DNA of 64,000 nt from Bacteroidota bacterium (GTDB lineage Bacteria > Bacteroidota > Ignavibacteria > UBA10030 > SZUA-254), in assembly GCA_036522515.1 (NCBI GenBank), contig DATDFQ010000055.1, forward strand, positions 1 through 64,000, read 5' to 3'. Below, piece after piece: positions 18,567 through 38,311 of the stretch (within the stretch, counting starts at the first letter, position 1; each line of letters begins with the position of its first letter). The translations under genes were made by a program, and so were the position numbers. The notes beneath the pieces are model-generated. The model did no database searches and was not told the origin of the DNA. It worked only from the letters and a program-made list of their open reading frames with translations.

Positions 18567-18583
18567 TTGCGGAGATGCCGCCG

Positions 18584-21883: not shown

Positions 21884-21893
21884 GCGGGTGACT

Positions 21894-22934: not shown

Positions 22935-25340
22935 TTGAACCGCTTCAAGACGAGATTCGGGTCATTTTCGCCCGATGGAACAGAGTACATCATTTCAACG
23001 CCCCGGACTCCCCGCCCCTGGATCAACGTCATCAGCAACGGAGATTACGGGATGACGTTCTCCCAGGCGGGAAGCGGGTATAGCTGGCGGACACACGCCC
23101 AGCTCAACAGGATTACGCGCTGGGAACAGGACCTGGTCAGGGACGACTGGGGGAAACACATCTATTTGCGGGACGAGAAGAGCAATATCTGGTCGGCCGG
23201 GTGGAAACCGGTCTGCGCCGAACCGGAGTCCTATCGCTGCCGGCACGGGTTCGGTTATTCCGCGATCGAATCTCTCCATGATGGCATCGGGACGGAGCTG
23301 CTCGTCTTTGTTCCGATGGAAGAGCCACTCGAGATTTGGCGCCTGACGGTCACGAACCGCTCCCGAAGGGCGCGTTCCCTCTCCGTTTTCACATACCTGG
23401 AATGGGGCCTCGGCCAGGCCCCCGACTGGCACCGGGAATTCCACAAATCCTTCATCGAAACGGAGTACGACCCCCGATCGCGGGCAGTCTATGCGACGAA
23501 GCGGCTCTGGGAGGTCCCCACCCCCCGCGGCCACTGGAACACTCCATGGCCCTATGTGGCCTTTCATTCCTCCAACCTCAAACCCACGTCGTTCGACACC
23601 GATAAAGAAACCTTCCTCGGGATGTACGGCTCGACGGCCTCGCCCGAGAGCGTTCAAAGAAACAGGCTGCGGAAGAGCGCGGGGAAAGGCCTCGACCCGG
23701 TCGCGAGCCTTCATTCCGGAATCGCCCTCAAACCGGGCGAATCGAAAACGCTTCTTTACACTCTCGGCGCCGCGGATTCCCGATCGCAGGCCGAAGGGCT
23801 CATTCTCAAGTATAAGGATCCCGGGGAGGTGGAGGCGGCGTTGGAGGAAGTGCACCGGCGCTGGTCGGGTCTTCTCAACGGCGCAGTCGCGGAGACGCCC
23901 GACCGTGCGATGGACCTGATGCAGAACGGATGGCTAAAGTACCAGGCGATCTCGGGACGAATCTGGGGGCGCACCGCGTACTATCAAACCGGAGGCGCCT
24001 TCGGGTTCCGCGATCAATTGCAGGACAGTCTCCTCTGGCTGGCGATCGATCCGGCGCGGACACTCGATCAGATCCGGCTCCACGCGAGGCACCAGTTCAG
24101 AGAGGGAACCGTCTATCATTGGTGGCATCCTCTCACCGAGCTGGGGTTGCGGAATCAGATTTCAGACAACCTGCTCTGGCTCCCCTACGCGATGAACCGC
24201 TATCTGCTGGAGACGAACGACTTCTCAACACTCGATCTCCGGGAACCCTGGGTCGATGACAGCCAGGGAGCGTCCCTCTACGATCATTGCGTGCTGGCGA
24301 TCGACTTCGCTCTTACCCGCTTCAGTCCGAGAGGCCTTCCCCTCATCGGTAGCGGCGACTGGAACGACGGTCTCAGCGCGGTCGGTCTCGAAATGAAAGG
24401 GGAATCGATCTGGCTGGGCCAGTTTCTCCACCGGATCCTGATCGAATTTGCTGCGGTTTCAGAGCGCCGGGGAGACACCGGGCGATCGAAACGGTATTGC
24501 TCCCGGGCGGATGAATTGCGAGCGAACCTGAACAGGCTCGGGTGGGACGGCGATTACTACTACGGCGCCACGAAGGACTCGGGCGACAAGCTCGGAAGCA
24601 GCGTCAATACCGAAGGGGCGATCTGGCTCAACCCCCAGACATGGGCGATCATCGGCGGTGTCGCGGATGAGGGCAGGGCTCAACAGTGCATGGACATCGT
24701 TGAACAGAAGCTGGAAGCGGAGATCGGCCCGCTCTTGTTGAAACCGGCATACAAAACACCCGACGAATATATAGGTTATCTGACGCGCTATAGTCCGGGG
24801 ATGCGCGAGAACGGAGGAGTCTATACGCACGCCGCGACCTGGGCGGTTATCGCCGCGGCGATGCTGGGCCGCGGAGAAACCGCGTTTCGGATCTACTCCA
24901 AGCTCAATCCGGTGAACCGCGGGAAGGATCCCGGCAGGTACTGCGCCGAACCGTATGTGACAGCCGGAAACATCGAAGGGCCCGATTCCCCGTTCTACGG
25001 AAGGGGGGGCTGGACATGGTACACCGGCTCGGCGGCGTGGCTCTTCAACGCAGGCTTCGAATGGATTCTCGGCATACGCCCGGCGTTCGGCGGGTTGTTG
25101 TGCGATCCGTGCATTCCACGGAGCTGGAAGGGGTTCGCCGTTCGCCGGAACTTCCGGGGAGCCCAGTACAACATCGTCGTGGAAAACCCCCGCCATGTCG
25201 AGTGCGGGGTGAATGAGATGTGGGTCGACGGAGAGCTGCAGCGCGGGGGCGCAAGCCCGAGATCGAACACAGCGCCGCTCTTTCCGGCGGGCACGACGCA
25301 CAATATTCGTGTCGTGATGGGAAGCGGACTGTCATCCTGA
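22935..25340 (+). CDS. GH94 family oligosaccharide phosphorylase
   Basis: Cytoplasmic phosphorylase of 801 aa (no signal peptide) that cleaves a beta-linked disaccharide or oligosaccharide with phosphate to give a sugar 1-phosphate. N-terminal beta-sandwich (IISTPRTPRPWINVISNGDY, RITRWEQDL, ESYRCRHGFGYSAI), (alpha/alpha)6 barrel (GFRDQLQDSLLW, YHWWHPLTELGLRN) and C-terminal beta domain (GIRPAFGGLLCDPCIP). The catalytic acid is D475 in GSGDWNDGL. Length and architecture match cellobiose or chitobiose phosphorylase rather than the longer 1,2-beta-oligoglucan phosphorylases, so the linkage is open. The stop codon lies inside a repeat whose first bases encode the last residues (LSS), so the original C-terminus may have been slightly different. 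Confidence 0.92.
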   Translation: MNRFKTRFGSFSPDGTEYIISTPRTPRPWINVISNGDYGMTFSQAGSGYSWRTHAQLNRITRWEQDLVRDDWGKHIYLRDEKSNIWSAGWKPVCAEPESYRCRHGFGYSAIESLHDGIGTELLVFVPMEEPLEIWRLTVTNRSRRARSLSVFTYLEWGLGQAPDWHREFHKSFIETEYDPRSRAVYATKRLWEVPTPRGHWNTPWPYVAFHSSNLKPTSFDTDKETFLGMYGSTASPESVQRNRLRKSAGKGLDPVASLHSGIALKPGESKTLLYTLGAADSRSQAEGLILKYKDPGEVEAALEEVHRRWSGLLNGAVAETPDRAMDLMQNGWLKYQAISGRIWGRTAYYQTGGAFGFRDQLQDSLLWLAIDPARTLDQIRLHARHQFREGTVYHWWHPLTELGLRNQISDNLLWLPYAMNRYLLETNDFSTLDLREPWVDDSQGASLYDHCVLAIDFALTRFSPRGLPLIGSGDWNDGLSAVGLEMKGESIWLGQFLHRILIEFAAVSERRGDTGRSKRYCSRADELRANLNRLGWDGDYYYGATKDSGDKLGSSVNTEGAIWLNPQTWAIIGGVADEGRAQQCMDIVEQKLEAEIGPLLLKPAYKTPDEYIGYLTRYSPGMRENGGVYTHAATWAVIAAAMLGRGETAFRIYSKLNPVNRGKDPGRYCAEPYVTAGNIEGPDSPFYGRGGWTWYTGSAAWLFNAGFEWILGIRPAFGGLLCDPCIPRSWKGFAVRRNFRGAQYNIVVENPRHVECGVNEMWVDGELQRGGASPRSNTAPLFPAGTTHNIRVVMGSGLSS

Positions 25341-25421
25341 GGGAGCAAGGCGACCGAAGGATCTCACTATGACCAATCATCGAAAAGCCGGATTCTTCGT
25401 CGCTTCGCTCCTCAGAATGAC
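25331..25421. repeat. Inverted-repeat element joining two glycosidase genes
   Basis: Left arm GTCATCCTGAGGGAGC and right arm GCTCCTCAGAATGACG, same family as the 119-bp elements. It contains the TGA stop of the GH94 gene (25338-25340), an AAGGA Shine-Dalgarno (25357-25361) and the ATG of the next gene (25369), plus that gene's first 17-18 codons. Confidence 0.75.
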
Positions 25422-26988
25422 GCTCATCGCACTGACGCTCGGGGCGTCCGGAGATCCCCTCACTGCACAGGTTACGGACGATCAGCTGCTCGACACACTC
25501 CAGCATTCCGCGTTCAGTTTCTTCTGGCAGGAAGCCAACCCTTCGAACGGATTGATCAAAGACCGGAGCGCATCCGGAGCTCCGTGCAGCATCGCCTCTG
25601 TCGGGTTTGGCCTGACCGCGATCTGCATCGGCGCCGACCATGGGTGGGTGACGCGCGAAGCGGCGCGCGACCGGGTACTGGCCGCTCTCCGGACATTCTG
25701 GACAGGCCCCCAGGGAACCGCACCATCCGGCACGACCGGCTACAAAGGGTTTTTCTATCATTTTCTCGACATGAACACGGGCGTCCGGACCTGGAACAGC
25801 GAGCTCTCGACGATCGACAGCGGGCTGCTTCTCGCCGGGATTCTCCATACGAGGGAATACTTCAACGGGAGCGACTCCGGAGAAGTGCAGATCCGCTCGC
25901 TCGCCGACTCGATTTACCGCCGCGCAGACTGGGAGTGGTTCAGAAATTTCAACGCGGGTATCCTGATGGGATGGAACCCGGGGACTGGGTTTGCCGGGTA
26001 CGGACAATGGACCGGCTACAACGAAGCGATGATCATGTACATTCTCGGATATGGTTCCCCAACGCACCCGGTCGCAGACCAGCTCGGATGGCAACAATGG
26101 ACCAGCGGATACCAGTGGCAGACGCAGTACGGCTATACGTACGTCATCTTCCCGCCGCTCTTCGGGCATCAGTACTCGCACTGCTGGATCGACTTCGGCG
26201 GCATCGCGGATTCATATATGCGTAACAAAGGGATCGACTATTTTGAGAACTCCCGCCGGGCGACGCTCGCACAACGCGCCTACTGTGCGGCAAATCCGGG
26301 AGGGTGGGCGGGCTACAGCGACACGCTCTGGGGAATCACCGCGTCGGACGACACCGGGAACACCTACAGCGCCCGGGGCGCCCCGCCCGCGCAGAACGAC
26401 GACGGGACGCTGGTTCCCACGGCGCCCATCAGCTCCCTTCCGTTCGCGCCCGAAGAAGTGATCCCCGTGATTCGCAATCTGTGGAACAATTATCGCGGCC
26501 AGCTCTGGACGCCGTACGGATTCCGGGACGCGTTCAACCTGACAGCCAACTGGTGGGGTCCGGACATCATCGGCATCGACCAGGGGCCGATCATCATCAT
26601 GATAGAAAATTACCGGACCGGCGGAGTCTGGAACCGGTTCATGCAGAACGCGGACATCCAGCGCGGACTCGCGCGCATCGGCTTTCAGCCCTTCGCGGGT
26701 GTCGAGGACCGGTCGCTCGCGCCCGCCTCGTTCGAACTCTTTCAGAATTATCCCAATCCCTTTAACGGTTCGACCGTGATCCGGTATTCGCTGCCCTCTT
26801 CCGGCTCCGTCACTCTGAAGATTTTTGACCTTCTCGGCCGTGAAATTCGCACGCTCGTCAACGGAGAGGAATCGATCGGAGTCCACGCTGTAACGTTCAG
26901 CGCGGATCCTCTCTCCTCCGGTGTCTACCGGTACCGGCTCGTCTCCCGCGGCCGGGTCGCCGTCAAACAGTTCATCCTTCTCAAGTGA
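25369..26988 (+). CDS. GH144-type glucanase with T9SS sorting domain
   Basis: Secreted glycosidase of 539 aa of the glycoamylase-like family (PF10091, CAZy GH144, whose characterised members are beta-1,2-glucanases). After a signal peptide, the (alpha/alpha)6 domain shows FSFFWQEANPSNGLIKDRS, GYKGFFYHFLDMNTGVR, ELSTIDSGLLLAG, GYNEAMIMYILGYGSPTHP (likely acidic catalytic region), FGHQYSHCWIDF and ENSRRATLAQRAY. The C-terminus is a type IX sorting domain (ELFQNYPNPFNGSTVIRY ... SGVYRYRL ... KQFILLK), so it acts outside or on the cell surface. The ATG at 25369 has AAGGA seven bases upstream; ATG 25417 is an alternative. Both lie in the repeat. Its neighbour is a second GH144 gene. Confidence 0.9.
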   Translation: MTNHRKAGFFVASLLRMTLIALTLGASGDPLTAQVTDDQLLDTLQHSAFSFFWQEANPSNGLIKDRSASGAPCSIASVGFGLTAICIGADHGWVTREAARDRVLAALRTFWTGPQGTAPSGTTGYKGFFYHFLDMNTGVRTWNSELSTIDSGLLLAGILHTREYFNGSDSGEVQIRSLADSIYRRADWEWFRNFNAGILMGWNPGTGFAGYGQWTGYNEAMIMYILGYGSPTHPVADQLGWQQWTSGYQWQTQYGYTYVIFPPLFGHQYSHCWIDFGGIADSYMRNKGIDYFENSRRATLAQRAYCAANPGGWAGYSDTLWGITASDDTGNTYSARGAPPAQNDDGTLVPTAPISSLPFAPEEVIPVIRNLWNNYRGQLWTPYGFRDAFNLTANWWGPDIIGIDQGPIIIMIENYRTGGVWNRFMQNADIQRGLARIGFQPFAGVEDRSLAPASFELFQNYPNPFNGSTVIRYSLPSSGSVTLKIFDLLGREIRTLVNGEESIGVHAVTFSADPLSSGVYRYRLVSRGRVAVKQFILLK

Positions 26989-26992
26989 CCAG

Positions 26993-28390
26993 ATGAGATA
27001 TTTCCTCCTTGCGTTGTTATTAATCGTTCCCGGCAGTTGTCCCGACAGGCGCGCGGCGCAGGATGTCGCCGGGCAGACGCCCCAATCGCTGAGCGACCCG
27101 TTCCTCGACACCCTGCAGGCGCGGACGATCAGGTGGTTTCTGGACGTCACCCCCCGCGCCACGGGGCTCACGCCCGACCGGTGGCCGGCATCCTCGCCCT
27201 CGAGCATCGCCGCCGCCGGATTTGCGCTGGCTGCGACTCCCATTGCGGTGCGGCATTCGCTGATCGGACGGGCCGAAGCCGCGGAGAGAACCCGTACGGC
27301 TCTTCGTTTTCTCTGGAGCCTGCCGCAGGACAACACGGGCGTGCATTCCGCCGGGTACAAGGGTTTCTTCTATCACTTCATCGGAACCCAGACAGGGATG
27401 CGGGCATGGAACTGCGAACTCTCGACGATCGACACCGGGCTTCTCATCGCCGGGGTCTTGTGTTGTCAATCGTATTTTGACGGCGCCGATCCCGCCGAGG
27501 GGGAGATCAGGTCTCTTGCGGATTCACTCTACAGAAGAATCGACTGGCGGTGGGCCATGGGCGACACGAGCGGGATCTGGATGGGTTGGAAACCGGAGGA
27601 AGGGTGGACCCCGCTCACCTGGCACGGCTATAACGAGGCGATGATCATTTACATCCTTGCGCTCGGATCCCCCACGCACACGGTTCCCGCGACCGTGTGG
27701 GAACATTGGACGGCCCCCTACGTGTGGCGGGAACATGAGGGCCAGGCGTATCTCAATTTCGCTCCGCTCTTCGGTCACCAGTACTCGCACCTCTGGATCG
27801 ATTACCGGGGGATTCAGGACGACTACATGCGGGCGAAGGGGATCGATTACTTCGAAAACTCGCGGCGCGCCACCTATGCCAACCGCGCCTATGCGATCGA
27901 AAACCCGGGGCGGTGGCAGGATTATTCAGACTCGATCTGGGGACTGACCGCATGCGACGGGCCGGGCGACACCACGTTCGACGTCCTCGGGCGGTCAAGG
28001 AAATTTCAAGGCTATTCCGCGCGCGGTCCCTCCGCGGAGTGGACGAACGACGACGGCACCGTCTCGCCGACCGCAGCCGGGGGATCGCTCCCTTTCGCCC
28101 CCGAGATCTGCCTTCCCGCCCTGAAAGCGATGGAACGGAGGTACGGCGGCAAGCTTTGGACACGGTACGGTTTTCTCGATGCGTTTAACCCGACCTATGT
28201 TACCCCCTCGACCCCCGGGGGATGGTTCGACCGCGACTACCTCGGGATCGACCAGGGACCGATCGTGCTGATGATTGAAAACCTCCGCGACGGGTTTCTC
28301 TGGAACGTGATGAAGAAAAACCCCTACATCGTCGAAGGATTGAAAAAAGCCGGCTTCCGCGGCGGGTGGCTGGACACGGCAAAGAAGTAG
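26993..28390 (+). CDS. GH144-type glucanase without sorting domain
   Basis: Second GH144/PF10091 enzyme, 465 aa, four bases after the previous stop codon. It shares the family motifs: GYKGFFYHFIGTQTGMRAWN, CELSTIDTGLLIAG, GYNEAMIIYILALGSPTHT, LFGHQYSHLWIDYRG, YFENSRRATYANRAYAIE, LGIDQGPIVLMIENLRDG. The N-terminus MRYFLLALLLIVPGSC is an export signal; the cysteine could be lipidated although the lipobox is imperfect. No type IX tail is present, so it is probably periplasmic or membrane-anchored and acts on oligosaccharides after import through the outer membrane. The start is the first ATG after the preceding gene. Confidence 0.9.
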   Translation: MRYFLLALLLIVPGSCPDRRAAQDVAGQTPQSLSDPFLDTLQARTIRWFLDVTPRATGLTPDRWPASSPSSIAAAGFALAATPIAVRHSLIGRAEAAERTRTALRFLWSLPQDNTGVHSAGYKGFFYHFIGTQTGMRAWNCELSTIDTGLLIAGVLCCQSYFDGADPAEGEIRSLADSLYRRIDWRWAMGDTSGIWMGWKPEEGWTPLTWHGYNEAMIIYILALGSPTHTVPATVWEHWTAPYVWREHEGQAYLNFAPLFGHQYSHLWIDYRGIQDDYMRAKGIDYFENSRRATYANRAYAIENPGRWQDYSDSIWGLTACDGPGDTTFDVLGRSRKFQGYSARGPSAEWTNDDGTVSPTAAGGSLPFAPEICLPALKAMERRYGGKLWTRYGFLDAFNPTYVTPSTPGGWFDRDYLGIDQGPIVLMIENLRDGFLWNVMKKNPYIVEGLKKAGFRGGWLDTAKK

Positions 28391-28458
28391 GGGCGGGGTA
28401 TGCCTCGCCCGTCCTGCGGAAGCCGAAAATCACGACAACATTAAAAAGGAGATCGTTG

Positions 28459-30219
28459 GTGTCCACCCTGAGTCGGAGAGCTTCCATCATAGCGGCGGTG
28501 TCGTTAGGAATGTTCGGGTGTTACTCCGCCTCCGCTCAACCCCATACCTACTGCAATCCGATGAACATCGATTACGCCTACGGGCCGATCCCCAATTTTT
28601 CCGAACAGGGCAAGCATCGCACCACCGCCGATCCGGTGATCACGTTGTTCAAAGGGGACTACTATCTTTTTTCCACGAACCAGTGGGGCTACTGGTGGTC
28701 CGAAGACATGCTTCGGTGGAATTTCGTCTCTCGCAGGTTTCTGAAGCCGTGGCACAAGGTCTACGACGACCTGTGCGCGCCTGCCACGCTCGTTTTGGGT
28801 GACACCCTCCTGGTCGTCGGCTCGACCTACACGCTCGATTTCCCGGTCTGGATGAGCACGAAACCCCGGATGGACGAATGGAAAGAGCGGGTCGATTCGT
28901 TCAAAGTCGGCGCATGGGATCCCGCGTTCTTCCTCGACGACGACGGGCGCCTTTACCTCTATTTCGGGTCGAGCAATCTCTATCCGACGTACGGCCAGGA
29001 GATCGACCGGTCCACGTTCCTGCCGATCGGTGAGCGGGTGGAGTTGATTCATGCGGACGGGGAGACGCACGGGTGGGAACGGTTCGGCGAATACAACGAC
29101 AACACGTTTCTCAACCCCTTCGTGGAGGGGTCGTGGATGAACAAACACGGCGGGAAGTATTACCTTCAGTACGCAGGGCCGGGAACGGAGTTCAGCGGCT
29201 ACGGCGACGGCGTCTACGTCGGCAGCAAGCCCCTGGGCCCCTTCACCTATCAGGCGCACAACCCCTTTTCCTACAAACCGGGCGGGTTCGCCCGGGGCGC
29301 CGGCCACGGATCCACGTTTCAGGACAGGGCCGGCAACTGGTGGCACATCTCCACGATGGGGATATCGGTCAAGAACAACTTCGAACGGCGCCTGGGCATC
29401 TTCCCGGCCGCGTTCGACTCCGACGGAGTGTTATATACGAACACGGCCTACGGGGATTATCCGTTCGCAATGCCGGGCGGAAAGGTAAATGCTCCGGAAA
29501 GCCTCTTCACGGGGTGGATGCTGCTGAATCTCAACAAGCCGGTGACGGTTTCTTCGACCCTGGGAGCGTACGATCCGAATTACGCGGTGGACGAAGATAT
29601 CAGGACCTACTGGAGCGCCGCGACAGGAGAGAAGGGCGAGTGGATTCAATCGGACCTCGGGCGCGAAAGCACGGTCCGGGCCATTCAGATCAATTACGCG
29701 GACCAGGACGCGGAATTCCTCGGCAAGCAGCAGGGGATTTATCATCAATACAAGCTCTCCTCCTCCCTCGACGGGAAGGCGTGGGAAGTTCTGGCCGACA
29801 AGTCGGCGAACAGGAGCGATATCCCGCACGAGTATGTCGAACTGGCCCGGCCGGCGCGGGCGCGTTTCGTCAAGCTGGAAAACATTCACGTGCCGACCGG
29901 AAAATTTGCAGTCAGCGGTTTGCGCGTCTTCGGAAATGGGAACGGCAAGAAGCCGGGGGCGGTCAAGAATTTCGTTGTGCTGAGGGGGCAGAGCGAACGG
30001 CGCGACGCCTGGCTCAAATGGCAATTGATGGATGACGCCCAGGGGTACACGATCTATACGGGAATCCAGCAGGATAAACTCTACAACAACATCATGATCT
30101 ACGGAAAGAACGAGTACTATTTCAAGGGGATGGACAAGAATCTCCCCTATTATTTCCAGATCGAAGCATTCAACGAGAACGGCGTCAGCGCACGCACCCC
30201 GGTGATAAAGGCGGAATAA
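28459..30219 (+). CDS. GH43-like glycosidase with CBM32 (F5/8-type) domain
   Basis: Exported protein of 586 aa. The five-bladed propeller of GH43 carries the three expected acidic residues: base D58 (TTADPVI), pKa-modulating D154 (AWDPAFFLDDDG) and acid E223 (FVEGSWMNKHGG). A discoidin/CBM32-like carbohydrate-binding module lies at about 355-490 (NYAVDEDIRTYWSA, WIQSDLGRES, RARFVKLENIHV), followed by an FN3-like tail. I chose GTG 28459 with AAGGAG seven bases upstream, opening a signal peptide (SRRASIIAAVSLGMFGCYSASAQ) with a possible lipidated Cys; an ATG at 28366 would overlap the previous gene without such a signal. GH43 usually acts on arabinose or xylose linkages, but specificity cannot be read here. 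Confidence 0.85.
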   Translation: MSTLSRRASIIAAVSLGMFGCYSASAQPHTYCNPMNIDYAYGPIPNFSEQGKHRTTADPVITLFKGDYYLFSTNQWGYWWSEDMLRWNFVSRRFLKPWHKVYDDLCAPATLVLGDTLLVVGSTYTLDFPVWMSTKPRMDEWKERVDSFKVGAWDPAFFLDDDGRLYLYFGSSNLYPTYGQEIDRSTFLPIGERVELIHADGETHGWERFGEYNDNTFLNPFVEGSWMNKHGGKYYLQYAGPGTEFSGYGDGVYVGSKPLGPFTYQAHNPFSYKPGGFARGAGHGSTFQDRAGNWWHISTMGISVKNNFERRLGIFPAAFDSDGVLYTNTAYGDYPFAMPGGKVNAPESLFTGWMLLNLNKPVTVSSTLGAYDPNYAVDEDIRTYWSAATGEKGEWIQSDLGRESTVRAIQINYADQDAEFLGKQQGIYHQYKLSSSLDGKAWEVLADKSANRSDIPHEYVELARPARARFVKLENIHVPTGKFAVSGLRVFGNGNGKKPGAVKNFVVLRGQSERRDAWLKWQLMDDAQGYTIYTGIQQDKLYNNIMIYGKNEYYFKGMDKNLPYYFQIEAFNENGVSARTPVIKAE

Positions 30220-33200
30220 TGGGCATTTCTTTGTCGTTACTGCTTCTCATCATCACCGCGCCCGCGGGATCCCAATCGAAGCATCTCGACGACTTCGAGA
30301 CCATCACGGGATGGAGGTCCATCGTCTCCGATGGCGCAAAACTGAATCTTTCGGCGAGCCCCGGCAAGGCGGGGAACGCACTCCGGATGGATTTCGAATT
30401 CGCCGGAGGCTCGGGGTATACGATCGCTCAGAAGGACTTTCACCTCGACCTGCCCGCGAACTATGAGTTCACCTTCGATATGCGCGCGGACGCGCCGGTC
30501 AATAATTTCGAGTTCAAACTTCTCGACTCGTCCGGCAATGTCTGGTGGATCAAGAGGTTGGACATCGAGTACCCCAAACAATGGACGCCCGAGCGCATCA
30601 AGAAACGCCAGATCTCGTTTGCGTGGGGGCCTTCGGGGGGCGGGGAGGTTCGCCGCGTGGAGAAAATCGAGTTCGTCGTCTCGGTGGGGACCGGGGGAAA
30701 AGGGAGTGTCTTCATCGATAACTTCAGGCTCGAGCCGATCGACGACGAGGCGGCAAAGAGCGCGCACGCCGCGTTCGCGGCCTCCTCGATGAAAAAGGGA
30801 GGCGAGCCGGTCCTGGACGAACATGGAACACTCCTCACCGGATGGAGGGGAGAGCATGATCAGGAATGGCTCTCCATCAATTTCAATTGCCTGAAAGAGG
30901 TGGGGGGGCTGGTGATCGACTGGGAGAAGGCCGGTTACGCAAGCTCCTATGACGTCGAGCTCTCGAACGACGGCAGGGAGTGGACGGCGTGCTACACCGT
31001 GACGAACGGCAACGGCGGGAGGGATTACATCTATCTTCCCGAGACGGACACGCGGGAGTTGCGTCTCAATTTCAGAAAGAGCCCGGGCGGGAAGGGCTAC
31101 GGCATCGCGCGCATGGAGGTGAAGGGCCCGGAGTTTTCCTCAAGCGCGAACGATTTCTTCTCTGCGCTCGCAAAAGACTCGCCCCGGGGATACTTTCCAC
31201 GATACTTCCTGAACCAGCAGAGCTACTGGACGGTCGTCGGCGCAAGCGGCGATACGAAGGAAGCCCTCGTCAACGAACAGGGGGCGATCGAAGTCGACAA
31301 GCTCCGTTTTTCGCTCGAGCCGTTCCTGTTTATCGGCAACAAGCTCATTACATGGAGCGACGTGTCGCTGGAGCAGTCCCTCGAGAACGGCTACCTCCCC
31401 ATCCCGTCCGTCAAATGGAAGTACGGCGGGATCGAGCTGACGGTCCGCGCGTTCTCAGCCGGCGTGGCCGGCAATTCCATGCTGCTTGCAAGTTACACGA
31501 TCGAGAACGAGGGGAGCTCTCCCCCGAAGGGGAAACTCTTCGTCGCGGTTCGTCCATTTCAGGTGAATCCGCCCTGGCAGAGGCTGAATCTCATCGGCGG
31601 GGCGGCGCGGATCGACAGCATCCGGGACGACAAGGGGCTATTGCGCGTTCAGGACAAGCTCGTCATACCCCTTTCCAACGCGTCATCGTTCGGCGCGACC
31701 GATTTTGACGGCGGCGAGATTCTGGAACATCTGAAGAACGGAACGGTCCCTCCCTCTCAGGCGGTCCTCGACTCGCGCGGCTTCGCCTCGGGCGCGCTCG
31801 AGTACGACTACGATGTCCCGTCCGGTGATTCGAAAGAGTTCCACGTCGCCGTCCCGTTCCACGCGTGGAACGGAAGCCCCTCGCCGAACATGGGCGCCGG
31901 CGCGGATCTCTACGTGAGCCTTGCCCATGACGCGACCCTACGGTTCTGGGAGTCGAAGCTGAGCACGGTCCGTCTCAATCTTCCCGCCATCGCATCACCG
32001 GTCGTCAACACGTTGAAATCGACGCTTGCCTACATCCTGATCAACAGGGACGGCCCCGGGATTCAGCCCGGATCGCGGAGCTACGAGCGTTCGTGGATCC
32101 GCGACGGATCCCTCACGTCCACGGCGCTTCTGGAGATGGGGTTGAAGGATGAGGTGAAGGAGTACTTGGATTGGTACACGGGCTATCAGTTCCCGGACGG
32201 GAGGATTCCCTGCGTGGTTGACAGCAGGGGCGCCGATCCCACCGCCGAGCACGACAGTCACGGAGAGTACATCTACGCGGTGATGCAGTACTTCGACTAT
32301 GCGAAGGACACGGCGTGGCTCCGTTCCAAATTTGATCCGGTCGTGAAGACCGTCCGCGCGATCCAGTCTCTACGCGCCGGGCGAAAGACGGAGCTCTACA
32401 GGCAGGGGACCCCCGAAGAGCGCGCCTGCTACGGACTGGTCCCTCAGTCGATCAGCCATGAAGGATATTCCTCGAAGCCGATGCATTCGTACTGGGACGA
32501 TTTCTTCATCCTCCGCGGATTGAAGGACGCGGCGGCGATGGCGGCAATTCTCGGCGAGACGAAACTCGCCGGAGAGTTTTCCGCCGAGCGGGACGACATG
32601 CGGAACGATCTCTACACTTCCATGCGGTCCGCGATGGCGCTCAAGGGGATCGACTATATCCCCGGGTGTGTCGAACTCGGCGATTTCGACGCGACCTCCA
32701 CCACGATCGGCGTCAACCCGGTAAACGAACTGGGCTTGATCCCCGAGCCCGGACTCCACAACACGTTCGAGAAGTATTACGATTATTTCAAGAAACGGCG
32801 CGCGGGCTCGATTCCCTGGGATGCCTACACCCCGTACGAGAATCGCCTGATCGGGACATTCGTCTACCTGGGCCAGAAACGGCGGGCGGAAGAGGCCCTG
32901 GAATTTTTCATGCGCGGCCGGCGACCGGCGGCGTGGAACGAGTGGGCCGAGGTGGTCCACCGCGATTCGCTCGCGCCGGAATTCATCGGCGATATGCCGC
33001 ACACCTGGTGCGGTTCGGATTTTATCCGGTCCGTCCGCTCGATGTTTGTCTACGAGCGCGAGAAAGACACCGCCCTGGTCATCGGCGCGGGCATTCCCGA
33101 AGAATGGCTGAACGGGCCCGAAGGGGTCGAGGTGCGCGACCTTCCGACCTTCTACGGATTGCTGTCGTACGCCATGAAAAAATCGGGGAAGAAGTCCGCC

Positions 33201-33380
33201 CCGATCATCCGGCTCGAGTTGAGCGGGGGCGTCCGCGTGCCGGGCGGAGGGCTGGTTGTTCCGTCGCCGCTTGAGCAGAAGCTCACATCGGTCAGGATAA
33301 ACGGCGTTCAAGCCCGGGCGACCCGGTCCTCCGAGGTCATTGTCCGCAAACTTCCGGCATCGATTGAGTTCCGGTATTGA
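30219..33380 (+). CDS. Multidomain exported (alpha/alpha)6-barrel protein, putative new glycosidase
   Basis: Exported 1053-aa protein; its start codon overlaps the previous stop by one base. Signal peptide MGISLSLLLLIITAPAGSQS. A CBM11/CIA30-like galactose-binding domain spans about 22-175 (LDDFETITGWRSI, GSVFIDNFRLEP), then a discoidin/CBM32-like domain about 190-305 (LSINFNCLKEVGGLVIDWEK, SYDVELSNDGREW), a beta-sandwich, and an (alpha/alpha)6 domain from about 600 to 960 resembling amylo-1,6-glucosidase/GH15/GH63-type barrels (SYERSWIRDGSLTSTALLEM, GRIPCVVDSRGADPTAEHDS, NEWAEVVHRD, DMPHTWCGSDFIRS). Candidate acids sit in WIRDGS and WNEWAEV. I know no CAZy family that matches with certainty. 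Position between GH43-like and GH2 genes implies a role in the same degradation. Confidence 0.75.
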   Translation: MGISLSLLLLIITAPAGSQSKHLDDFETITGWRSIVSDGAKLNLSASPGKAGNALRMDFEFAGGSGYTIAQKDFHLDLPANYEFTFDMRADAPVNNFEFKLLDSSGNVWWIKRLDIEYPKQWTPERIKKRQISFAWGPSGGGEVRRVEKIEFVVSVGTGGKGSVFIDNFRLEPIDDEAAKSAHAAFAASSMKKGGEPVLDEHGTLLTGWRGEHDQEWLSINFNCLKEVGGLVIDWEKAGYASSYDVELSNDGREWTACYTVTNGNGGRDYIYLPETDTRELRLNFRKSPGGKGYGIARMEVKGPEFSSSANDFFSALAKDSPRGYFPRYFLNQQSYWTVVGASGDTKEALVNEQGAIEVDKLRFSLEPFLFIGNKLITWSDVSLEQSLENGYLPIPSVKWKYGGIELTVRAFSAGVAGNSMLLASYTIENEGSSPPKGKLFVAVRPFQVNPPWQRLNLIGGAARIDSIRDDKGLLRVQDKLVIPLSNASSFGATDFDGGEILEHLKNGTVPPSQAVLDSRGFASGALEYDYDVPSGDSKEFHVAVPFHAWNGSPSPNMGAGADLYVSLAHDATLRFWESKLSTVRLNLPAIASPVVNTLKSTLAYILINRDGPGIQPGSRSYERSWIRDGSLTSTALLEMGLKDEVKEYLDWYTGYQFPDGRIPCVVDSRGADPTAEHDSHGEYIYAVMQYFDYAKDTAWLRSKFDPVVKTVRAIQSLRAGRKTELYRQGTPEERACYGLVPQSISHEGYSSKPMHSYWDDFFILRGLKDAAAMAAILGETKLAGEFSAERDDMRNDLYTSMRSAMALKGIDYIPGCVELGDFDATSTTIGVNPVNELGLIPEPGLHNTFEKYYDYFKKRRAGSIPWDAYTPYENRLIGTFVYLGQKRRAEEALEFFMRGRRPAAWNEWAEVVHRDSLAPEFIGDMPHTWCGSDFIRSVRSMFVYEREKDTALVIGAGIPEEWLNGPEGVEVRDLPTFYGLLSYAMKKSGKKSAPIIRLELSGGVRVPGGGLVVPSPLEQKLTSVRINGVQARATRSSEVIVRKLPASIEFRY

Positions 33381-33387
33381 CCCCACA

Positions 33388-36054
33388 ATGACAGCGTTTC
33401 TCTTTCACATCGACCCATCCAAACCCCGGAACAAGTTCCCTCTCAACGGCACGTGGGAGATCCAACCCGGGGGAGAAGAAATGCCGTCAGGCGGATGGAA
33501 CAGCAGCGTCCCGGTTCCGGGACTCGTCGACCTCGCGCTCCCGCCGTACGAGTGGCGGCATCACAAGTACAACTGGTACAGAACCCTGTTCGAATTTGAC
33601 GAGCCGTTCAGTCCCGACGCGGTCCTGCTCACGATCGAGCAGGCGATGTTCGGCACCGAGGTGTGGCTCAACGGACGGAGACTGGGCGGGGACATTGCCT
33701 GCTACACTTCCCAGGTGTATGATTTAACCGACTTTCTGGTTTCAAGGTCGGAGAACGAACTCCTCGTCAGGGTGGGCGCCAAAGAGACGCTTCCCCAGGA
33801 GAGCGCCGTGGGGAGAGATCAGGAGCGGGCTGAGTTCATTCCCGGCATCTGGGGGGATGTGCACCTTACCGTGTGCGGGAATCCGCGCATTAAACTCGTG
33901 CAGGTGATCCCGCACATCGACACCGGCGTGGCCGAAGCCCGTCTCTGGGTGGCGAACAAATCTGAAGCGGAGGTCTCCGTCGATATTGCCCTGCGCGTGC
34001 TGGAGAAGCGCGAGGGTAAGCCTGCGTCGGAATTCGCGACGCGGCGGATCATCCTTCCTCCGGGGAAGGAGAGGAATTTGTCGGTCGACCTTCGTATCCG
34101 GGATCCGAAACTCTGGTCGCCCGCGAACCCGTTCCTCTACGAGCTCGACGCCTATGTGCTCGACCGCCAGTCGATCCTCGACCGGGTCCTCACCACATTC
34201 GGCATGCGGGAGTTCAGGATCGCGGGCCCCGATTTTCTGTTGAACGGAAGAACAATCCGCCTCCGCGGCGGCAATATCGCGTTCCACCGGTTTCTGTCGG
34301 ACGCCGGGCGCGGCCTCCTGCCGTGGAACCTCGACTGGGTGAAGAAACTCCTGATCGACATACCGAAGGCGCACCACTTCAATTTCTTCCGGTTCCACAT
34401 CGGCCAGGCATACAACCGGTGGTACGACCTCGCAGACGAGCATGGCATGCTCCTCCAGAACGAATGGCAGTTCTGGACCACGACCGGGACCCCGGAGCAG
34501 ATCAGAAAAGAGTTCACCCGCTGGTTGCAGGATAACTGGAACCACCCGGCCATCGTCATCTGGGATCCGCTCAACGAGTCGGCCGATCCGGCCGTGCAGG
34601 ACGAGATCGTTCCGGAAATGAAGAAACTCGACCCGACGCGGCCGTGGGAATCCGTTGATGTTCATGAGCAGCATCCGTATATTTACTCGCTCGGGCCGGT
34701 CCTGGTGAACTGGAAGTTCGGGTTCACGTCAGCGCTCGACGAGATCGAGCGGTCGGAAATTCCGTCGATGGTCAATGAGTTCCTCTGGTGGTGGCTCGAC
34801 AGGGATTTCAATCCGACACTCCTCACGAAGGAGGTGGTTGAGCGGTGGCTCGGTCCCTCCTGGCAGAAGGAAGAGCTGATCGAACGCCAGTCGTTCCTGG
34901 CGCAGGAACTGGTCGAGCTTTTCCGGCGCATGGACGTGAAGGCGATCCAGCCGTTCGTCTACCTGAGCAACGATCAGGGTCCGACCGGCAACTGGTTTTC
35001 CGGCGACATCGCCGCGCTCGTTCCAAAACCGGTTCTGGCCGCCCTGAAGAACGCGTTTGCGCCGTTCGGCCTCAGCATTGAATTGTGGGACAGACACTTC
35101 TTCACCGACGAGCCGAGGATGATGCAGATATTCATCTTCAACGACGGAGGGGGAGCCCGGGAGGGTGTGGTTCGCATGGGAATATGCGATGAGCAGGGCA
35201 GGTGGTTTTCGAAGCTCGAGATGCCGGTCGACGTACCGGCCGGGGAGCGCCTCGTGGAATCGGTGCTCATGCATTTTCCCCCGAAGGAGGGCGCGTATAC
35301 AGTCACGGCCGAGCTTGTCGAGGAACATGAGCCCGTTGTCGCGGTCAGCCGGAAGAGGGCGCACGTTCTGAAGCCGCCGGAGGCGTCGGTTACGCTCTTG
35401 AAAAAGAGGGTCGCGCTCCTCGACCCCGGCGGCGAGTTGACGGGTTACCTCGCGTCCGTCGGAATAGAGACAGACGACGTCCGGAGCTCCGGGCTCGCCA
35501 AGACACGCACGCTGGTCGTGTCGGAAGGGTCCATGAGTGACGCATACGTTCAATCCGGCGCCGAAGAGATCTCCGGTTTTCTGGAATCGGGGGGGACGCT
35601 CATCCTCATCGAGCCGGAGTTCGGCGTGACTTCGAAGGAAGTGCAGCAGATTCCGGGCGGGATTGACCTGACGATCGAGCCGAGAAACGATATGGACAAA
35701 GGCGGATACGATTCCTACGTGTTCGCGGAAAACCATGCCCACCCGCTCTGGAGCGGAATTTCCAGGGAACACCTGCAGATGTTCAACGGGGGATACGGCG
35801 GGGAGGTGGTTTCGGAACATCATGTTTCGGCGAATCTCCCCGTCACAATTCACGCGCGCTGCGGCATGCAGTTGAAGCATGCGGCGGTGTTTGAACTGCG
35901 CTCCGGCAGGGGCCGGGTCCTTGTTTCCCGGCTTCAACTGCGCGGGAGGCTGGCGGAATCGGCCGGGAACGAGTCGCTCTACTCCCGCCGGCCGGATCCG
36001 GTTCTTCAGCAGTATCTCTTAAACCTTCTCTCCTATGCGGCCCAGGATGATTAA
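33388..36054 (+). CDS. GH2-family glycosidase with extra C-terminal domain
   Basis: Glycoside hydrolase of 888 aa without a signal peptide, so probably cytoplasmic. Sugar-binding jelly roll (LNGTWEIQPGG, YNWYRTLFEFDEPF, TEVWLNGRRLGG), immunoglobulin-like domain, and TIM barrel from about residue 285 (IRLRGGNIAFHRFLSDAG). E397 in WDPLNES fits the acid/base and E464 in MVNEFLWWW fits the nucleophile. The last 200 residues (VALLDPGGELTGYLASVGIE, LESGGTLILIEPE, HPLWSGISREHL, GRGRVLVSRLQL) look like a class-I amidotransferase/ThuA-like domain, which is unusual in a GH2. The ATG at 33388 lies seven bases after the previous stop; no strong Shine-Dalgarno. Beta-galactosidase, glucuronidase or mannosidase activity cannot be separated by eye. 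Confidence 0.82.
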   Translation: MTAFLFHIDPSKPRNKFPLNGTWEIQPGGEEMPSGGWNSSVPVPGLVDLALPPYEWRHHKYNWYRTLFEFDEPFSPDAVLLTIEQAMFGTEVWLNGRRLGGDIACYTSQVYDLTDFLVSRSENELLVRVGAKETLPQESAVGRDQERAEFIPGIWGDVHLTVCGNPRIKLVQVIPHIDTGVAEARLWVANKSEAEVSVDIALRVLEKREGKPASEFATRRIILPPGKERNLSVDLRIRDPKLWSPANPFLYELDAYVLDRQSILDRVLTTFGMREFRIAGPDFLLNGRTIRLRGGNIAFHRFLSDAGRGLLPWNLDWVKKLLIDIPKAHHFNFFRFHIGQAYNRWYDLADEHGMLLQNEWQFWTTTGTPEQIRKEFTRWLQDNWNHPAIVIWDPLNESADPAVQDEIVPEMKKLDPTRPWESVDVHEQHPYIYSLGPVLVNWKFGFTSALDEIERSEIPSMVNEFLWWWLDRDFNPTLLTKEVVERWLGPSWQKEELIERQSFLAQELVELFRRMDVKAIQPFVYLSNDQGPTGNWFSGDIAALVPKPVLAALKNAFAPFGLSIELWDRHFFTDEPRMMQIFIFNDGGGAREGVVRMGICDEQGRWFSKLEMPVDVPAGERLVESVLMHFPPKEGAYTVTAELVEEHEPVVAVSRKRAHVLKPPEASVTLLKKRVALLDPGGELTGYLASVGIETDDVRSSGLAKTRTLVVSEGSMSDAYVQSGAEEISGFLESGGTLILIEPEFGVTSKEVQQIPGGIDLTIEPRNDMDKGGYDSYVFAENHAHPLWSGISREHLQMFNGGYGGEVVSEHHVSANLPVTIHARCGMQLKHAAVFELRSGRGRVLVSRLQLRGRLAESAGNESLYSRRPDPVLQQYLLNLLSYAAQDD

Positions 36055-38311
36055 CCGGATTTTGAAAACCGTGCGATGGTGCACTGCGTTTCTTTTCCTC
36101 GTCCCTGCACTGCGTGCGCCCGGGGGCGAGCCCGGCTCGCGCCGCGCCGCCGATCCGGAGGTCGAGCGGAAGATCGATTCCCTTCTGTCGGTCATGACGC
36201 TCGGGGAAAAACTGGGACAACTCAACCAGATCGTGGCGAACTGGAACGACAAAGAGAAAAAGCCGTTCCTCGATGAGAAACAACTGAAGCTCATGCGGGG
36301 CGGGGGCATCGGTTCGTTTCTGAATGTGGTGGGCGCGGCGGAGACGAAGGGGATGCAGAAGATCGCCGTGGAGGAAACCCGGCTGCACATTCCGCTCATC
36401 TTCGGTTTGGATGTCATCCATGGGTTTCGAACCGTCTTCCCGATTCCGCTTGCGCAAGCCGCGAGCTGGGATCCGGAACTGATCGAGCGTGCCGAGCGGA
36501 TCGCCGCCACCGAAGCTGCCTCCTCAGGCATCAACTGGACGTTCGCCCCGATGGTGGACATTGCGCGCGATCCGAGGTGGGGGAGAATTGCGGAGGGCGC
36601 GGGCGAAGACCCGTATCTCGGATCGGCGATCGCGGCAGCGCGCGTGCGCGGATTTCAATCGGCCGGGCTCGAGGATTCAAGCGCGCTCCTCGCGTGCGCG
36701 AAGCATTTCGCCGCCTACGGGGGTGCGGAGGGGGGACGCGACTATAACACCGTCGATTTCTCCGAGCGGACCATCCGCGAGATTTACCTTGCCCCTTTTC
36801 ATGCCGCCGTCAACGCCGGTGTGGGCTCGCTCATGAGCGCGTTTAACGATGTCTCCGGAGTCCCAAGCTCGGCGAATCCGTGGCTCCTGACCGCGGTGTT
36901 GCGAAAGGAGTGGGGATTCGACGGGTTCGTGGTGAGCGACTGGACCGCAATCGAAGAATTGCAAAAGCATGGCATCGCGGGGAACAGGCCTGAGGCGGGG
37001 ATCAAGGCGATGACCGCCGGGGTTGACATGGATATGGTGAGCTCGATCTACGTGAACGACCTGCCTGAAATGGTCCGGGCGGGGAAGCTCTCACAATTGG
37101 TCGTCGATGAATCCGTGCGGCGCGTGTTGCGGACGAAGTTTCGTCTCGGTCTCTTCAAGAATCCCTACCGGAACTGCACTCCCGGCCTCGATCAGAAAGT
37201 GATCCTTGCCCCGCGCCATCTCGAGGCGGCCAGGAAGCTCGCCGAGGAATCGATCGTCCTTCTGAAAAACGAAAAGAACCTCCTCCCCTTGCGCAAGGAT
37301 ATCGGAACGCTTGCCCTCATCGGTCCGCTCGCCGCCGACAGCGCAAACATGCTCGGTCCGTGGGCCGGAGCCGGCAAGAGCGCGGATGTGGTGACCGTGC
37401 TGACCGGAATCGGGATTCACGCAGGCCTGCAGACGAGGATCGTTGTCGAAAAGGGATGCGACATCGAGTCGTATGATACGAGCCGCTTTGCGAATGCGGT
37501 TTCGGCTGCGATACAGTCCGACGCCGTCGTGCTCGTCGCGGGAGAAGACCGTTCGATGAGCGGCGAAGCGGCGAGCCGGTCCGGAATCGGGCTCCCGGGA
37601 GTCCAGCGTGAGTTGATCGAGAGGATAATCTCGACGGGTAAACCGGTTGTGCTGGTCCTCATGAACGGCCGTCCGCTGGCGATTCCCTGGGAAGCCGATC
37701 ATGTGCCGGCGATCCTCGAGGCATGGTACCCCGGGATTCAAGCCGGCAATGCGATCGCCGGCATTCTCTTCGGCGACGTGAACCCGGGCGGTAAGCTGCC
37801 GGTCTCATTTCCCCGGAGCGTCGGGCAGGTCCCGCTCTATTATAACCACAAACGCACCGGACGGCCTGAGAGCACGGAAGACCACTACACATCAAAATAC
37901 ATCGATCTGAAGAACTCGCCGCAGTTTCCGTTCGGGTTCGGCCTGAGTTATACCCGGTACCGGTACAGCGATCTGCGGGTCGAGAAAAAGCGCGTTTCGA
38001 TGAGCGACACCGTCAGGGTGAGCGTACGGGTGGAAAACACCGGGAAAGTCGAAGGCGATGAGATCGTGCAGCTTTACATCCACGACGAGGTGGCAAGCGT
38101 CACGCGGCCGGTCGAGGAGCTGAAAGGGTTCCGGAGGATTCATCTTGCTCCGAACGAATCGAGAGTCGTGCATTTCGCTCTCACCGCGGGGGATCTTGCG
38201 TTCTACGACGCCGGGATGAAACTCGTCACCGAACCGGGCGTGTTTACGGTCTTCGTGGGGCCGAACTCAGTGGATAGGGAGGAAACGAAGTTTGAGCTTC
38301 TTGCGGAATGA
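36035..38311 (+). CDS. bglX: GH3 beta-glucosidase, BglX type
   Basis: Periplasmic or secreted beta-glucosidase of 758 aa, close to the usual 765 aa of BglX. Signal peptide (RILKTVRWCTAFLFLVPALRA), GH3 N-terminal barrel (GLDVIHGFRTVFPIPLAQAA, FAPMVDIARDPRWGR, GAGEDPYLGS), nucleophile D302 in GFVVSDWTAIEE, GH3 C-terminal domain (SIVLLKNEKNLLPL, GEDRSMSGEAASR) and FN3-like end (GDEIVQLYIHDEV, LKGFRRIHL). It releases glucose from beta-linked oligosaccharide ends. It overlaps the GH2 gene by 20 bases; an internal ATG at 36047 overlaps by 8 and is equally possible. It is the last gene of the plus-strand run. Confidence 0.92.
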   Translation: MRPRMINRILKTVRWCTAFLFLVPALRAPGGEPGSRRAADPEVERKIDSLLSVMTLGEKLGQLNQIVANWNDKEKKPFLDEKQLKLMRGGGIGSFLNVVGAAETKGMQKIAVEETRLHIPLIFGLDVIHGFRTVFPIPLAQAASWDPELIERAERIAATEAASSGINWTFAPMVDIARDPRWGRIAEGAGEDPYLGSAIAAARVRGFQSAGLEDSSALLACAKHFAAYGGAEGGRDYNTVDFSERTIREIYLAPFHAAVNAGVGSLMSAFNDVSGVPSSANPWLLTAVLRKEWGFDGFVVSDWTAIEELQKHGIAGNRPEAGIKAMTAGVDMDMVSSIYVNDLPEMVRAGKLSQLVVDESVRRVLRTKFRLGLFKNPYRNCTPGLDQKVILAPRHLEAARKLAEESIVLLKNEKNLLPLRKDIGTLALIGPLAADSANMLGPWAGAGKSADVVTVLTGIGIHAGLQTRIVVEKGCDIESYDTSRFANAVSAAIQSDAVVLVAGEDRSMSGEAASRSGIGLPGVQRELIERIISTGKPVVLVLMNGRPLAIPWEADHVPAILEAWYPGIQAGNAIAGILFGDVNPGGKLPVSFPRSVGQVPLYYNHKRTGRPESTEDHYTSKYIDLKNSPQFPFGFGLSYTRYRYSDLRVEKKRVSMSDTVRVSVRVENTGKVEGDEIVQLYIHDEVASVTRPVEELKGFRRIHLAPNESRVVHFALTAGDLAFYDAGMKLVTEPGVFTVFVGPNSVDREETKFELLAE

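What the first reader, a model, noticed from the sequence alone, without database searches (positions are those of the whole stretch)
30219..33380. 1053-aa exported barrel protein that may represent a new glycosidase family
Two galactose-binding-like modules, a beta-sandwich and an (alpha/alpha)6 barrel with candidate acids in WIRDGS and WNEWAEV. It sits between GH43-like and GH2 genes. Only distant resemblance to GH15/GH63/amylo-1,6-glucosidase barrels is evident by eye.
Basis: partly seen in the sequence, partly recalled or inferred. Interest (0 to 1): 0.6.

Follow-up and report, generated by a model that had tools for sequence, protein, structure and literature searches.

The report
Uncharacterised glycosidase family in β-1,2-glucan loci
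This gene encodes an exported sugar-cutting enzyme of a family with no curated name or solved catalytic domain, and it almost always sits beside the enzyme that chops β-1,2-glucan, so it probably does the next step in breaking down that bacterial signalling and osmoregulation sugar.

Summary
Window 30219-33380 (+) is a clean 1053-aa ORF. A high-confidence AlphaFold2 model (pLDDT 94) shows two β-sandwich modules, a β-supersandwich, an (α/α)6 barrel and a C-terminal sheet. About 290 genome contigs encode relatives, and the 80 kept span roughly a dozen phyla. The catalytic part matches no Pfam or NCBIfam family above cut-off in the window protein and no PDB sequence. By fold it belongs to the GH15/GH94/GH133-type superfamily at about 11% identity.

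The operon is a β-1,2-glucan utilisation locus (two GH144, CGS-type GH94, BT_3567/Lin1840-like GH3). Of 49 relatives with adequate flanks, 47 have GH144 nearby; across 100 related genomes, 30 of 31 that carry the family carry GH144 (Fisher 1e-13).

The proposed acid pair needs correcting. D629 of WIRDG matches the GH15 residue that holds glucose O4/O6. The likely acid is E748 (SHEGY, α5-α6 loop) and the likely base E911 (WNEWAEV, α11-α12 loop); both are invariant in 89 sequences.

Most likely: an inverting exo-glucosidase of a new GH family that trims β-1,2-glucan fragments. The exact linkage (β-1,2, or the α-1,6/β-1,6 linkages of natural glucans) is undecided. CAZy/dbCAN could not be searched.

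The parts
30219..33380 (+). 1053-aa exported protein of an unassigned (α/α)6-barrel glycosidase family (P0001)
   Evidence: ORF and translation; homologues; model
30219..30272 (+). probable signal peptide (residues 1-18)
   Evidence: hydrophobic helix 2-16 in the model; homologues have canonical signal peptides; no signal-peptide tool was run
30276..30743 (+). N-terminal β-sandwich module, CBM11/CBM4_9-like (residues 20-175)
   Evidence: PDB CBM11 E 7.7e-5 with the profile; Pfam CBM_11 in 6 of 46 members
30771..31127 (+). CBM32 / F5_F8 type C module (residues 185-303)
   Evidence: Pfam PF00754 E 1.3e-12; PDB CBM32s E 1.5e-14 with the profile; present in 46 of 46 members
31191..31868 (+). β-supersandwich (residues 325-550)
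   Evidence: AlphaFold2 strands 337-546; Foldseek matches to GH15/GH94 that carry this domain
31896..33047 (+). linker helix and (α/α)6 barrel (residues 560-943)
   Evidence: AlphaFold2 helices; Foldseek
32100..32105 (+). R628-D629 of WIRDG, predicted glucose O4/O6 clamp at subsite -1 (not the catalytic acid)
   Evidence: invariant 89/89; aligned with GH15 W-x-R-D; role of Arg542/Asp543 in dextran dextrinase, PMC12446779
32460..32462 (+). E748 (SHEGY), predicted general acid, in the α5-α6 loop
   Evidence: invariant 89/89; aligned with the GH94 W-N-D-G acid; conserved in the paralogue superfamily
32949..32951 (+). E911 (WNEWAEV), predicted general base, in the α11-α12 loop
   Evidence: invariant 89/89; aligned with the GH15 A-E-E base and GH133 S-E-L
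28366..30219 (+). GH43 + CBM32 protein, translationally coupled upstream neighbour
   Evidence: Pfam; only distant PDB matches
26921..28390 (+). GH144 β-1,2-glucanase homologue (no sorting tail found)
   Evidence: PF10091 E 5.6e-86; PDB 8xul XcSGL E 8e-146
25369..26988 (+). GH144 homologue with a type IX secretion tail
   Evidence: PF10091 E 2e-79 and Por_Secre_tail E 8.9e-7
22935..25340 (+). GH94 phosphorylase nearest the C-terminal domain of cyclic β-1,2-glucan synthase
   Evidence: PDB 8rf9 E 7.6e-173, ahead of cellobiose phosphorylase at 1.3e-132
21549..22901 (+). PorV-like type IX secretion protein
   Evidence: PF19572 E 7.4e-8
18575..21883 (+). 1102-aa conserved protein without any Pfam match, upstream of PorV in several of the same loci
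33340..36054 (+). GH2 protein
   Evidence: Pfam; PDB
36035..38311 (+). GH3 β-glucosidase related to BT_3567 and Lin1840, the β-1,2-glucan-associated GH3 enzymes
   Evidence: PDB 5xxl E 1.1e-207 and Lin1840 4zoa E 1.1e-169

Best explanation
P0001 is an exported, anomer-inverting exo-glycosidase of a family not yet described in the sources available here. Its supersandwich plus (α/α)6 barrel resembles GH15/GH94/GH133 enzymes. It works in β-1,2-glucan breakdown: secreted and periplasmic GH144 enzymes cut the polymer into β-1,2-gluco-oligosaccharides, the CBM32 and CBM11-like modules hold the glucan or its fragments, and the P0001 pocket takes the non-reducing-end glucose. R628-D629 clamp O4/O6 at subsite -1, E748 protonates the leaving oxygen, and E911 activates the attacking water. 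The released sugars are finished by GH3 β-glucosidase and GH94 phosphorylase. Shown here: gene, family, fold, invariant residues and gene linkage. Inferred: catalysis, inverting mechanism, exo action, and β-1,2-glucosyl as the bond cut.
For: Linkage: 47 of 49 relatives with adequate flanks have GH144 within 10 kb, and the genomes of the two exceptions have GH144 elsewhere. In 100 related genomes, 30 of 31 with the family have GH144 against 14 of 69 without it (Fisher 1e-13), on the same contig in 22. GH94, GH35 of the GLMA type, GH1, GH3, ABC transporters and SusCD-like pairs vary around a constant GH144 + P0001 core. The same pairing occurs on proteobacterial plasmids, in Croceibacterium with GH144 directly upstream and in Xanthomonas sacchari next to glucokinase and Entner-Doudoroff genes. 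A characterised Ignavibacterium cluster has the same GH144/GH94 make-up (PMC8861115). The window GH144, GH94 and GH3 are nearest to β-1,2-glucan enzymes. Fold: Foldseek top hits are GH15 dextran dextrinase (8e-19) and GH94 (5e-17) at 11-12% identity. Catalytic map: R628-D629, E748 and E911 are invariant in 89 sequences, align with the GH15 sugar clamp, GH94 acid and GH15 base, and sit in the same loops as the GH15 catalysts (PMC12446779). Four loci hold GH144 + P0001 with none of GH94, GH3, GH1 or GH35, so P0001 may supply the exo step there.
Against: No activity is known for any relative. Most loci already carry other exo-enzymes for sophoro-oligosaccharides, so a different linkage could be the target. 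Many relatives of this fold (GH15, GH133) cut α-glucosides. Pocket shape and the distance between E748 and E911 could not be measured because model coordinates are not exposed. The E748 alignment to GH94 rests on a weak profile match (score 53).
Confidence: 0.5

Rival explanations
1. It belongs to β-1,2-glucan loci but cuts the odd linkages that GH144 leaves behind: the single α-1,6 bond of α-1,6-cyclised β-1,2-glucans, or the β-1,6-glucosyl branches of osmoregulated periplasmic glucans. It would be a debranching exo-glucosidase.
For: Such linkages occur in natural β-1,2-glucans (PMC11842490). The nearest fold and profile relatives (GH15, GH133) include α-1,6-acting enzymes (glucodextranase, dextran dextrinase, amylo-1,6-glucosidase). 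Other exo-β-1,2 enzymes are usually already in the locus. Related genes occur in Xanthomonas and Lysobacter relatives, and Xanthomonas campestris makes an α-1,6-cyclised glucan.
Against: The family is near-universal in GH144 loci of about a dozen phyla, most with no known α-1,6-cyclised glucan. GH94 in the same superfamily acts on β-linkages, so fold does not decide the anomer.
Confidence: 0.28
2. It is a very divergent member of an existing CAZy family (GH15, GH133 or GH78) or of a recently numbered family that these tools cannot see.
For: 33 of 46 members match Bac_rhamnosid6H at E <= 0.01 (best 1.2e-7), 11 match GDE_C and 9 GH15, and some relatives pass the PF17389 cut-off. Profile score to GH15 is 75 against 12-35 for unrelated proteins. 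CAZy itself could not be searched.
Against: P0001 itself is below every curated cut-off. GH133 proteins of the same genomes score higher on PF17389 (46 bits) than this family's best (32.8 bits), so that match marks the superfamily, not GH78. Distances to GH15, GH133, GH94 and GH78 (75, 62.5, 53, 45.6) are no closer than those between separate numbered families (GH133-GH78 82). No paper found describes it.
Confidence: 0.2
3. It is a glucosyl transferase or phosphorylase rather than a hydrolase.
For: The best fold match is a transglucosylating GH15 homologue (9ju0), and GH94 phosphorylases follow. β-1,2-glucan loci are known to contain transglycosylases such as IaSGT (PMC8861115).
Against: An invariant acidic residue at the base position (E911, 89/89) and probable export argue against phosphorolysis. 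For GH15, sequence alone cannot tell hydrolase from transglycosylase (PMC12446779).
Confidence: 0.1
4. It is a non-catalytic glycan-binding or scaffold protein.
For: Two binding-module-like domains, and no known activity.
Against: Both catalytic-position glutamates and the sugar clamp are invariant across 89 divergent sequences and conserved in distant paralogues.
Confidence: 0.04

Closest known systems
GH15 (glucoamylase, glucodextranase, dextran dextrinase 9ju0/1ug9)
   Same: Supersandwich plus (α/α)6 barrel; W-x-R-D clamp; acid in the α5-α6 loop and base in the α11-α12 loop
   Different: About 11-13% identity; Pfam GH15 score 12.6 bits against a cut-off of 22; distinct SHEGY and WNEWAEV motifs; added CBM11-like and CBM32 modules; β-1,2-glucan gene context
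GH94 (cellobiose phosphorylase, GH94 domain of cyclic β-1,2-glucan synthase, SOGP)
   Same: Fold; acid motif position (WNDG against SHEG); β-glucoside context
   Different: No Pfam GH94 match; invariant Glu at the hydrolytic base position; probably exported; about 12% identity
GH133 / amylo-1,6-glucosidase (GDE_C)
   Same: Profile similarity (score 62.5); RD and S-E-L motifs aligned
   Different: Below the Pfam cut-off; the same genomes carry true GDE_C proteins separately
GH78 α-L-rhamnosidase (Bac_rhamnosid6H)
   Same: Best sub-threshold Pfam match over the first half of the barrel
   Different: 18.4 bits against a cut-off of 24.5; half-domain match only; true GH133 proteins score higher on it
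GH144 / clan GH-S β-1,2-glucanases
   Same: Same loci, same predicted glycan, also an (α/α)6 barrel
   Different: Profile score 24, within control level (12-35); no GH144 match
Ignavibacterium album IaSGT/GH144 gene cluster (PMC8861115)
   Same: Two GH144 and a CGS-type GH94 homologue
   Different: That cluster's studied enzyme is GH35; this family is not described in the passages read

Membership tests
GH15 | Sequence match above the curated PF00723 cut-off | tested here: not met
   12.6 bits against 22; 9 of 46 members at E <= 0.01, best 0.001
GH15 | Supersandwich + (α/α)6 barrel | tested here: met
   AlphaFold2 and Foldseek 9ju0 E 8.1e-19
GH15 | Acid and base Glu in the α5-α6 and α11-α12 loops, with an Arg-Asp clamp | tested here: met
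   E748, E911, R628-D629 by helix order and alignment; distances between residues not measured
GH15 | Inverting hydrolysis of α-glucosides | not testable with these tools
   needs enzyme assay
GH78 | Match over PF17389 across the catalytic domain | tested here: not met
   P0001 18.4 bits against 24.5, residues 626-796 only; some relatives pass but only over the first half, and GH133 proteins score higher
GH133 | Match above PF06202 cut-off | tested here: not met
   13.9 bits against 21 for P0001; one relative reaches 21.1 only with neighbouring pieces
GH94 | Match to PF17167/PF06165 | tested here: not met
   no match up to E 1; profile score 53
Clan GH-S (GH144 and relatives) | Sequence relation to GH144 | tested here: not met
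   no PF10091 match; hhalign score 24 at control level
Any CAZy-numbered family | dbCAN/CAZy match | not testable with these tools
   library not available; Pfam, NCBIfam and PDB negative for the barrel
β-1,2-glucan utilisation locus | Co-localised GH144 with GH94/GH3/GH1/GH35 and oligosaccharide transport genes | tested here: met
   window; relatives
β-1,2-glucan utilisation locus | Induction by, and growth on, β-1,2-glucan | not testable with these tools
   needs experiment

The most novel reading that the evidence does not exclude
P0001 founds a new glycoside hydrolase family that is a near-obligate second core enzyme of bacterial β-1,2-glucan degradation across about a dozen phyla, possibly with an unseen activity such as opening or trimming the α-1,6 joint or β-1,6 branches of natural (cyclic) β-1,2-glucans.
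Probability: 0.6. Interest if true: 0.65.

Novelty: new variant of a known kind. Interest (0 to 1): 0.52.

Why it matters
β-1,2-glucans are symbiosis, virulence and osmoregulation polymers, and the list of enzymes that break them down is recent and said to be incomplete (PMC11842490, PMC12102758). A widespread family beside GH144 in nearly every locus examined, annotated only as a discoidin domain-containing protein, would fill a conserved missing step. It can be tested directly with commercially available linear β-1,2-glucan and two point mutants. It also adds, with its 750-870-aa paralogues that match neither Pfam nor PDB, an uncharted branch to the GH15/GH94 barrel superfamily.

Tried and rejected
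D629 as catalytic acid: rejected because it aligns with the GH15 sugar-binding Asp. Membership of GH144/clan GH-S: rejected (profile score at control level). GH78 membership from the sub-threshold Pfam match: rejected because the match covers half the barrel and GH133 proteins score higher. Split N- and C-terminal ORFs in three relatives (L185, L186, L187) looked like gene fission, but reading them showed frame breaks in draft genomes. A link to the host's own cyclic glucan synthesis: no association between the family and CGS in 100 genomes (6 of 31 against 9 of 69, p = 0.55). A first hhalign run in global mode was discarded and redone in local mode. Literature searches found no description of the family.

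Full report
Observation. The ORF at 30219-33380 (+) is present as described, 1053 aa with an ATG that overlaps the stop of the upstream GH43 gene. A scan of genome contigs found 286 loci encoding relatives. The best 80 were kept, nearly all full length at 39-66% identity, from Ignavibacteriae, Bacteroidota, Verrucomicrobiota, KSB1, Calditrichota, Gemmatimonadota, Planctomycetota, Eisenbacteria, Krumholzibacteriota, Acidobacteriota, Rokubacteria and Pseudomonadota. It is therefore a conserved gene and not a chance reading frame.

Architecture. An AlphaFold2 model built on 89 relatives has mean pLDDT 94.1 and pTM 0.92. It shows a short hydrophobic N-terminal helix, two β-sandwich modules, a β-supersandwich, helices of an (α/α)6 barrel and a C-terminal sheet. 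Module 2 is a CBM32/F5-8C domain (Pfam E 1.3e-12; PDB CBM32 chains). Module 1 is weakly CBM11-like.

Family assignment. The catalytic half has no Pfam or NCBIfam match above a curated cut-off in P0001, and a profile of 89 relatives finds only the binding modules in the PDB. Foldseek places it with GH15 dextran dextrinase (E 8.1e-19), GH94 phosphorylases and the GH94 part of cyclic glucan synthase, glucodextranase, GH116, GH95 and GH78, all near 10-13% identity. Profile-profile scores rank GH15 75, GH133 62.5, GH94 53 and GH78 45.6, against 12-35 for unrelated families and 24 for GH144. Established families of this superfamily lie at similar distances from each other (GH133-GH78 82, GH133-GH94 56, GH15-GH133 29). 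Some relatives pass the GH78 Pfam cut-off over half the domain, but GH133 proteins of the same genomes score higher on that model, so it does not indicate GH78. These hhalign numbers are pairwise and not calibrated on a database. The conclusion is an unassigned family within a known superfamily; CAZy itself was not available.

Catalytic residues. Thirteen acidic positions in the barrel are conserved in at least 86 of 89 relatives. R628-D629 of WIRDG align with the GH15 W-x-R-D motif, whose Arg and Asp bind O4 and O6 of the subsite -1 glucose (PMC12446779). In GH15 the acid lies in the α5-α6 loop and the base in the α11-α12 loop. In the model these loops are residues 721-757 and 899-928 by helix order, and they contain the invariant E748 (SHEGY) and E911 (WNEWAEV). 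E748 aligns with the W-N-D-G acid motif of GH94 (that this Asp is the GH94 acid is from general knowledge). E911 aligns with the GH15 base and GH133 S-E-L. Both, with the RD pair, are kept in a separate paralogue superfamily of 750-870-aa proteins at about 21-25% identity. E908 of WNEWAEV is not conserved. Coordinates of the model could not be read, so pocket shape and residue distances are untested.

Genomic context. The window operon holds a PorV-like protein, a GH94 whose best PDB match is the C-terminal domain of cyclic β-1,2-glucan synthase, two PF10091/GH144 proteins (one with a type IX secretion tail; the other closest to Xanthomonas β-1,2-glucanase XcSGL 8xul), GH43, P0001, GH2, and a GH3 close to BT_3567 and Lin1840. 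This matches the published Ignavibacterium album β-1,2-glucan cluster, which has two GH144 and a GH94 homologous to the synthase domain (PMC8861115). Among relatives with at least 7 kb upstream and 3 kb downstream, 47 of 49 have GH144 in the locus, and the genomes of the two exceptions carry GH144 elsewhere. GH94 (29), the binding protein (22), GH35 (17), GH1 (13) and GH3 (11) vary. In an unbiased set of 100 related genomes, 30 of 31 with the family have GH144 against 14 of 69 without it (Fisher 1e-13; table compiled by hand). By comparison, the top paralogue matches checked do not share a contig with GH144. The pairing also occurs on a Croceibacterium plasmid and in Xanthomonas sacchari beside Entner-Doudoroff genes. 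In Croceibacterium the protein is annotated discoidin domain-containing protein; in X. sacchari no gene is listed there and the match is in three pieces, so that copy may be broken.

Mechanism. The best reading is an exported inverting exo-glucosidase that takes the non-reducing glucose of β-1,2-glucan fragments made by GH144. Exo action is inferred from the O4/O6 clamp. The β-1,2 bond is inferred from gene linkage and from four loci that lack GH94, GH3, GH1 and GH35. The main rival is that it removes α-1,6 or β-1,6 linkages that occur in natural β-1,2-glucans (PMC11842490). I put about 0.85 on a role in β-1,2-glucan breakdown, 0.5 on the exo-β-1,2 reading and 0.28 on the odd-linkage reading.

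Novelty. Papers found list GH144, GH162, GH186, GH189 and GH192-194 plus GH1, GH3, GH35 and GH94 enzymes for these glucans; none found describes this family. It is a new variant of a known kind: a probable new GH family in a known fold superfamily and a known kind of locus.

Noticed in passing
window 18575-21883 (+): A 1102-aa protein with no Pfam match even at E 5; homologues (53-64% identity) occur in 9 of the same loci, mostly directly upstream of the PorV-like gene.
   Followed up: partly
L102-L111 (for example G037:C25:4653-6584; own genome G000:C43:343150-343494): A paralogue superfamily of about 750-870 aa lacking the binding modules, related to residues 322-1014 of P0001 at about 21-25% identity. 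The members checked have no real Pfam match and the one tested has no PDB match; they keep the RD, S-x-E and E911-type motifs and are not near GH144.
   Followed up: partly
own genome G000:C18:8311-8937: A PF10091-like domain inside a ~3000-aa ORF suggests that the host also encodes a cyclic β-1,2-glucan synthase.
   Followed up: no
L042 2227-5889: A 1220-aa ORF next to the family gene appears to fuse GH144 and GH3 parts.
   Followed up: no
L187 / L011 2263-8547: Tandem duplication of the family: one intact copy followed by a frame-broken second copy.
   Followed up: yes
L114 (Xanthomonas sacchari plasmid record): The locus carries LacI, TonB receptor, GH144, ABC transporter, a family match in three pieces, then edd, pgl, glk, zwf, suggesting that the end product is glucose.
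   Followed up: partly
L113 (Methylosinus sp. C49 plasmid): A divergent 30%-identical relative matching only from residue 216 on, two genes from a GH15 protein and with no glucoamylase-family (GH144-type) gene listed, may mark a second subfamily with another substrate.
   Followed up: no
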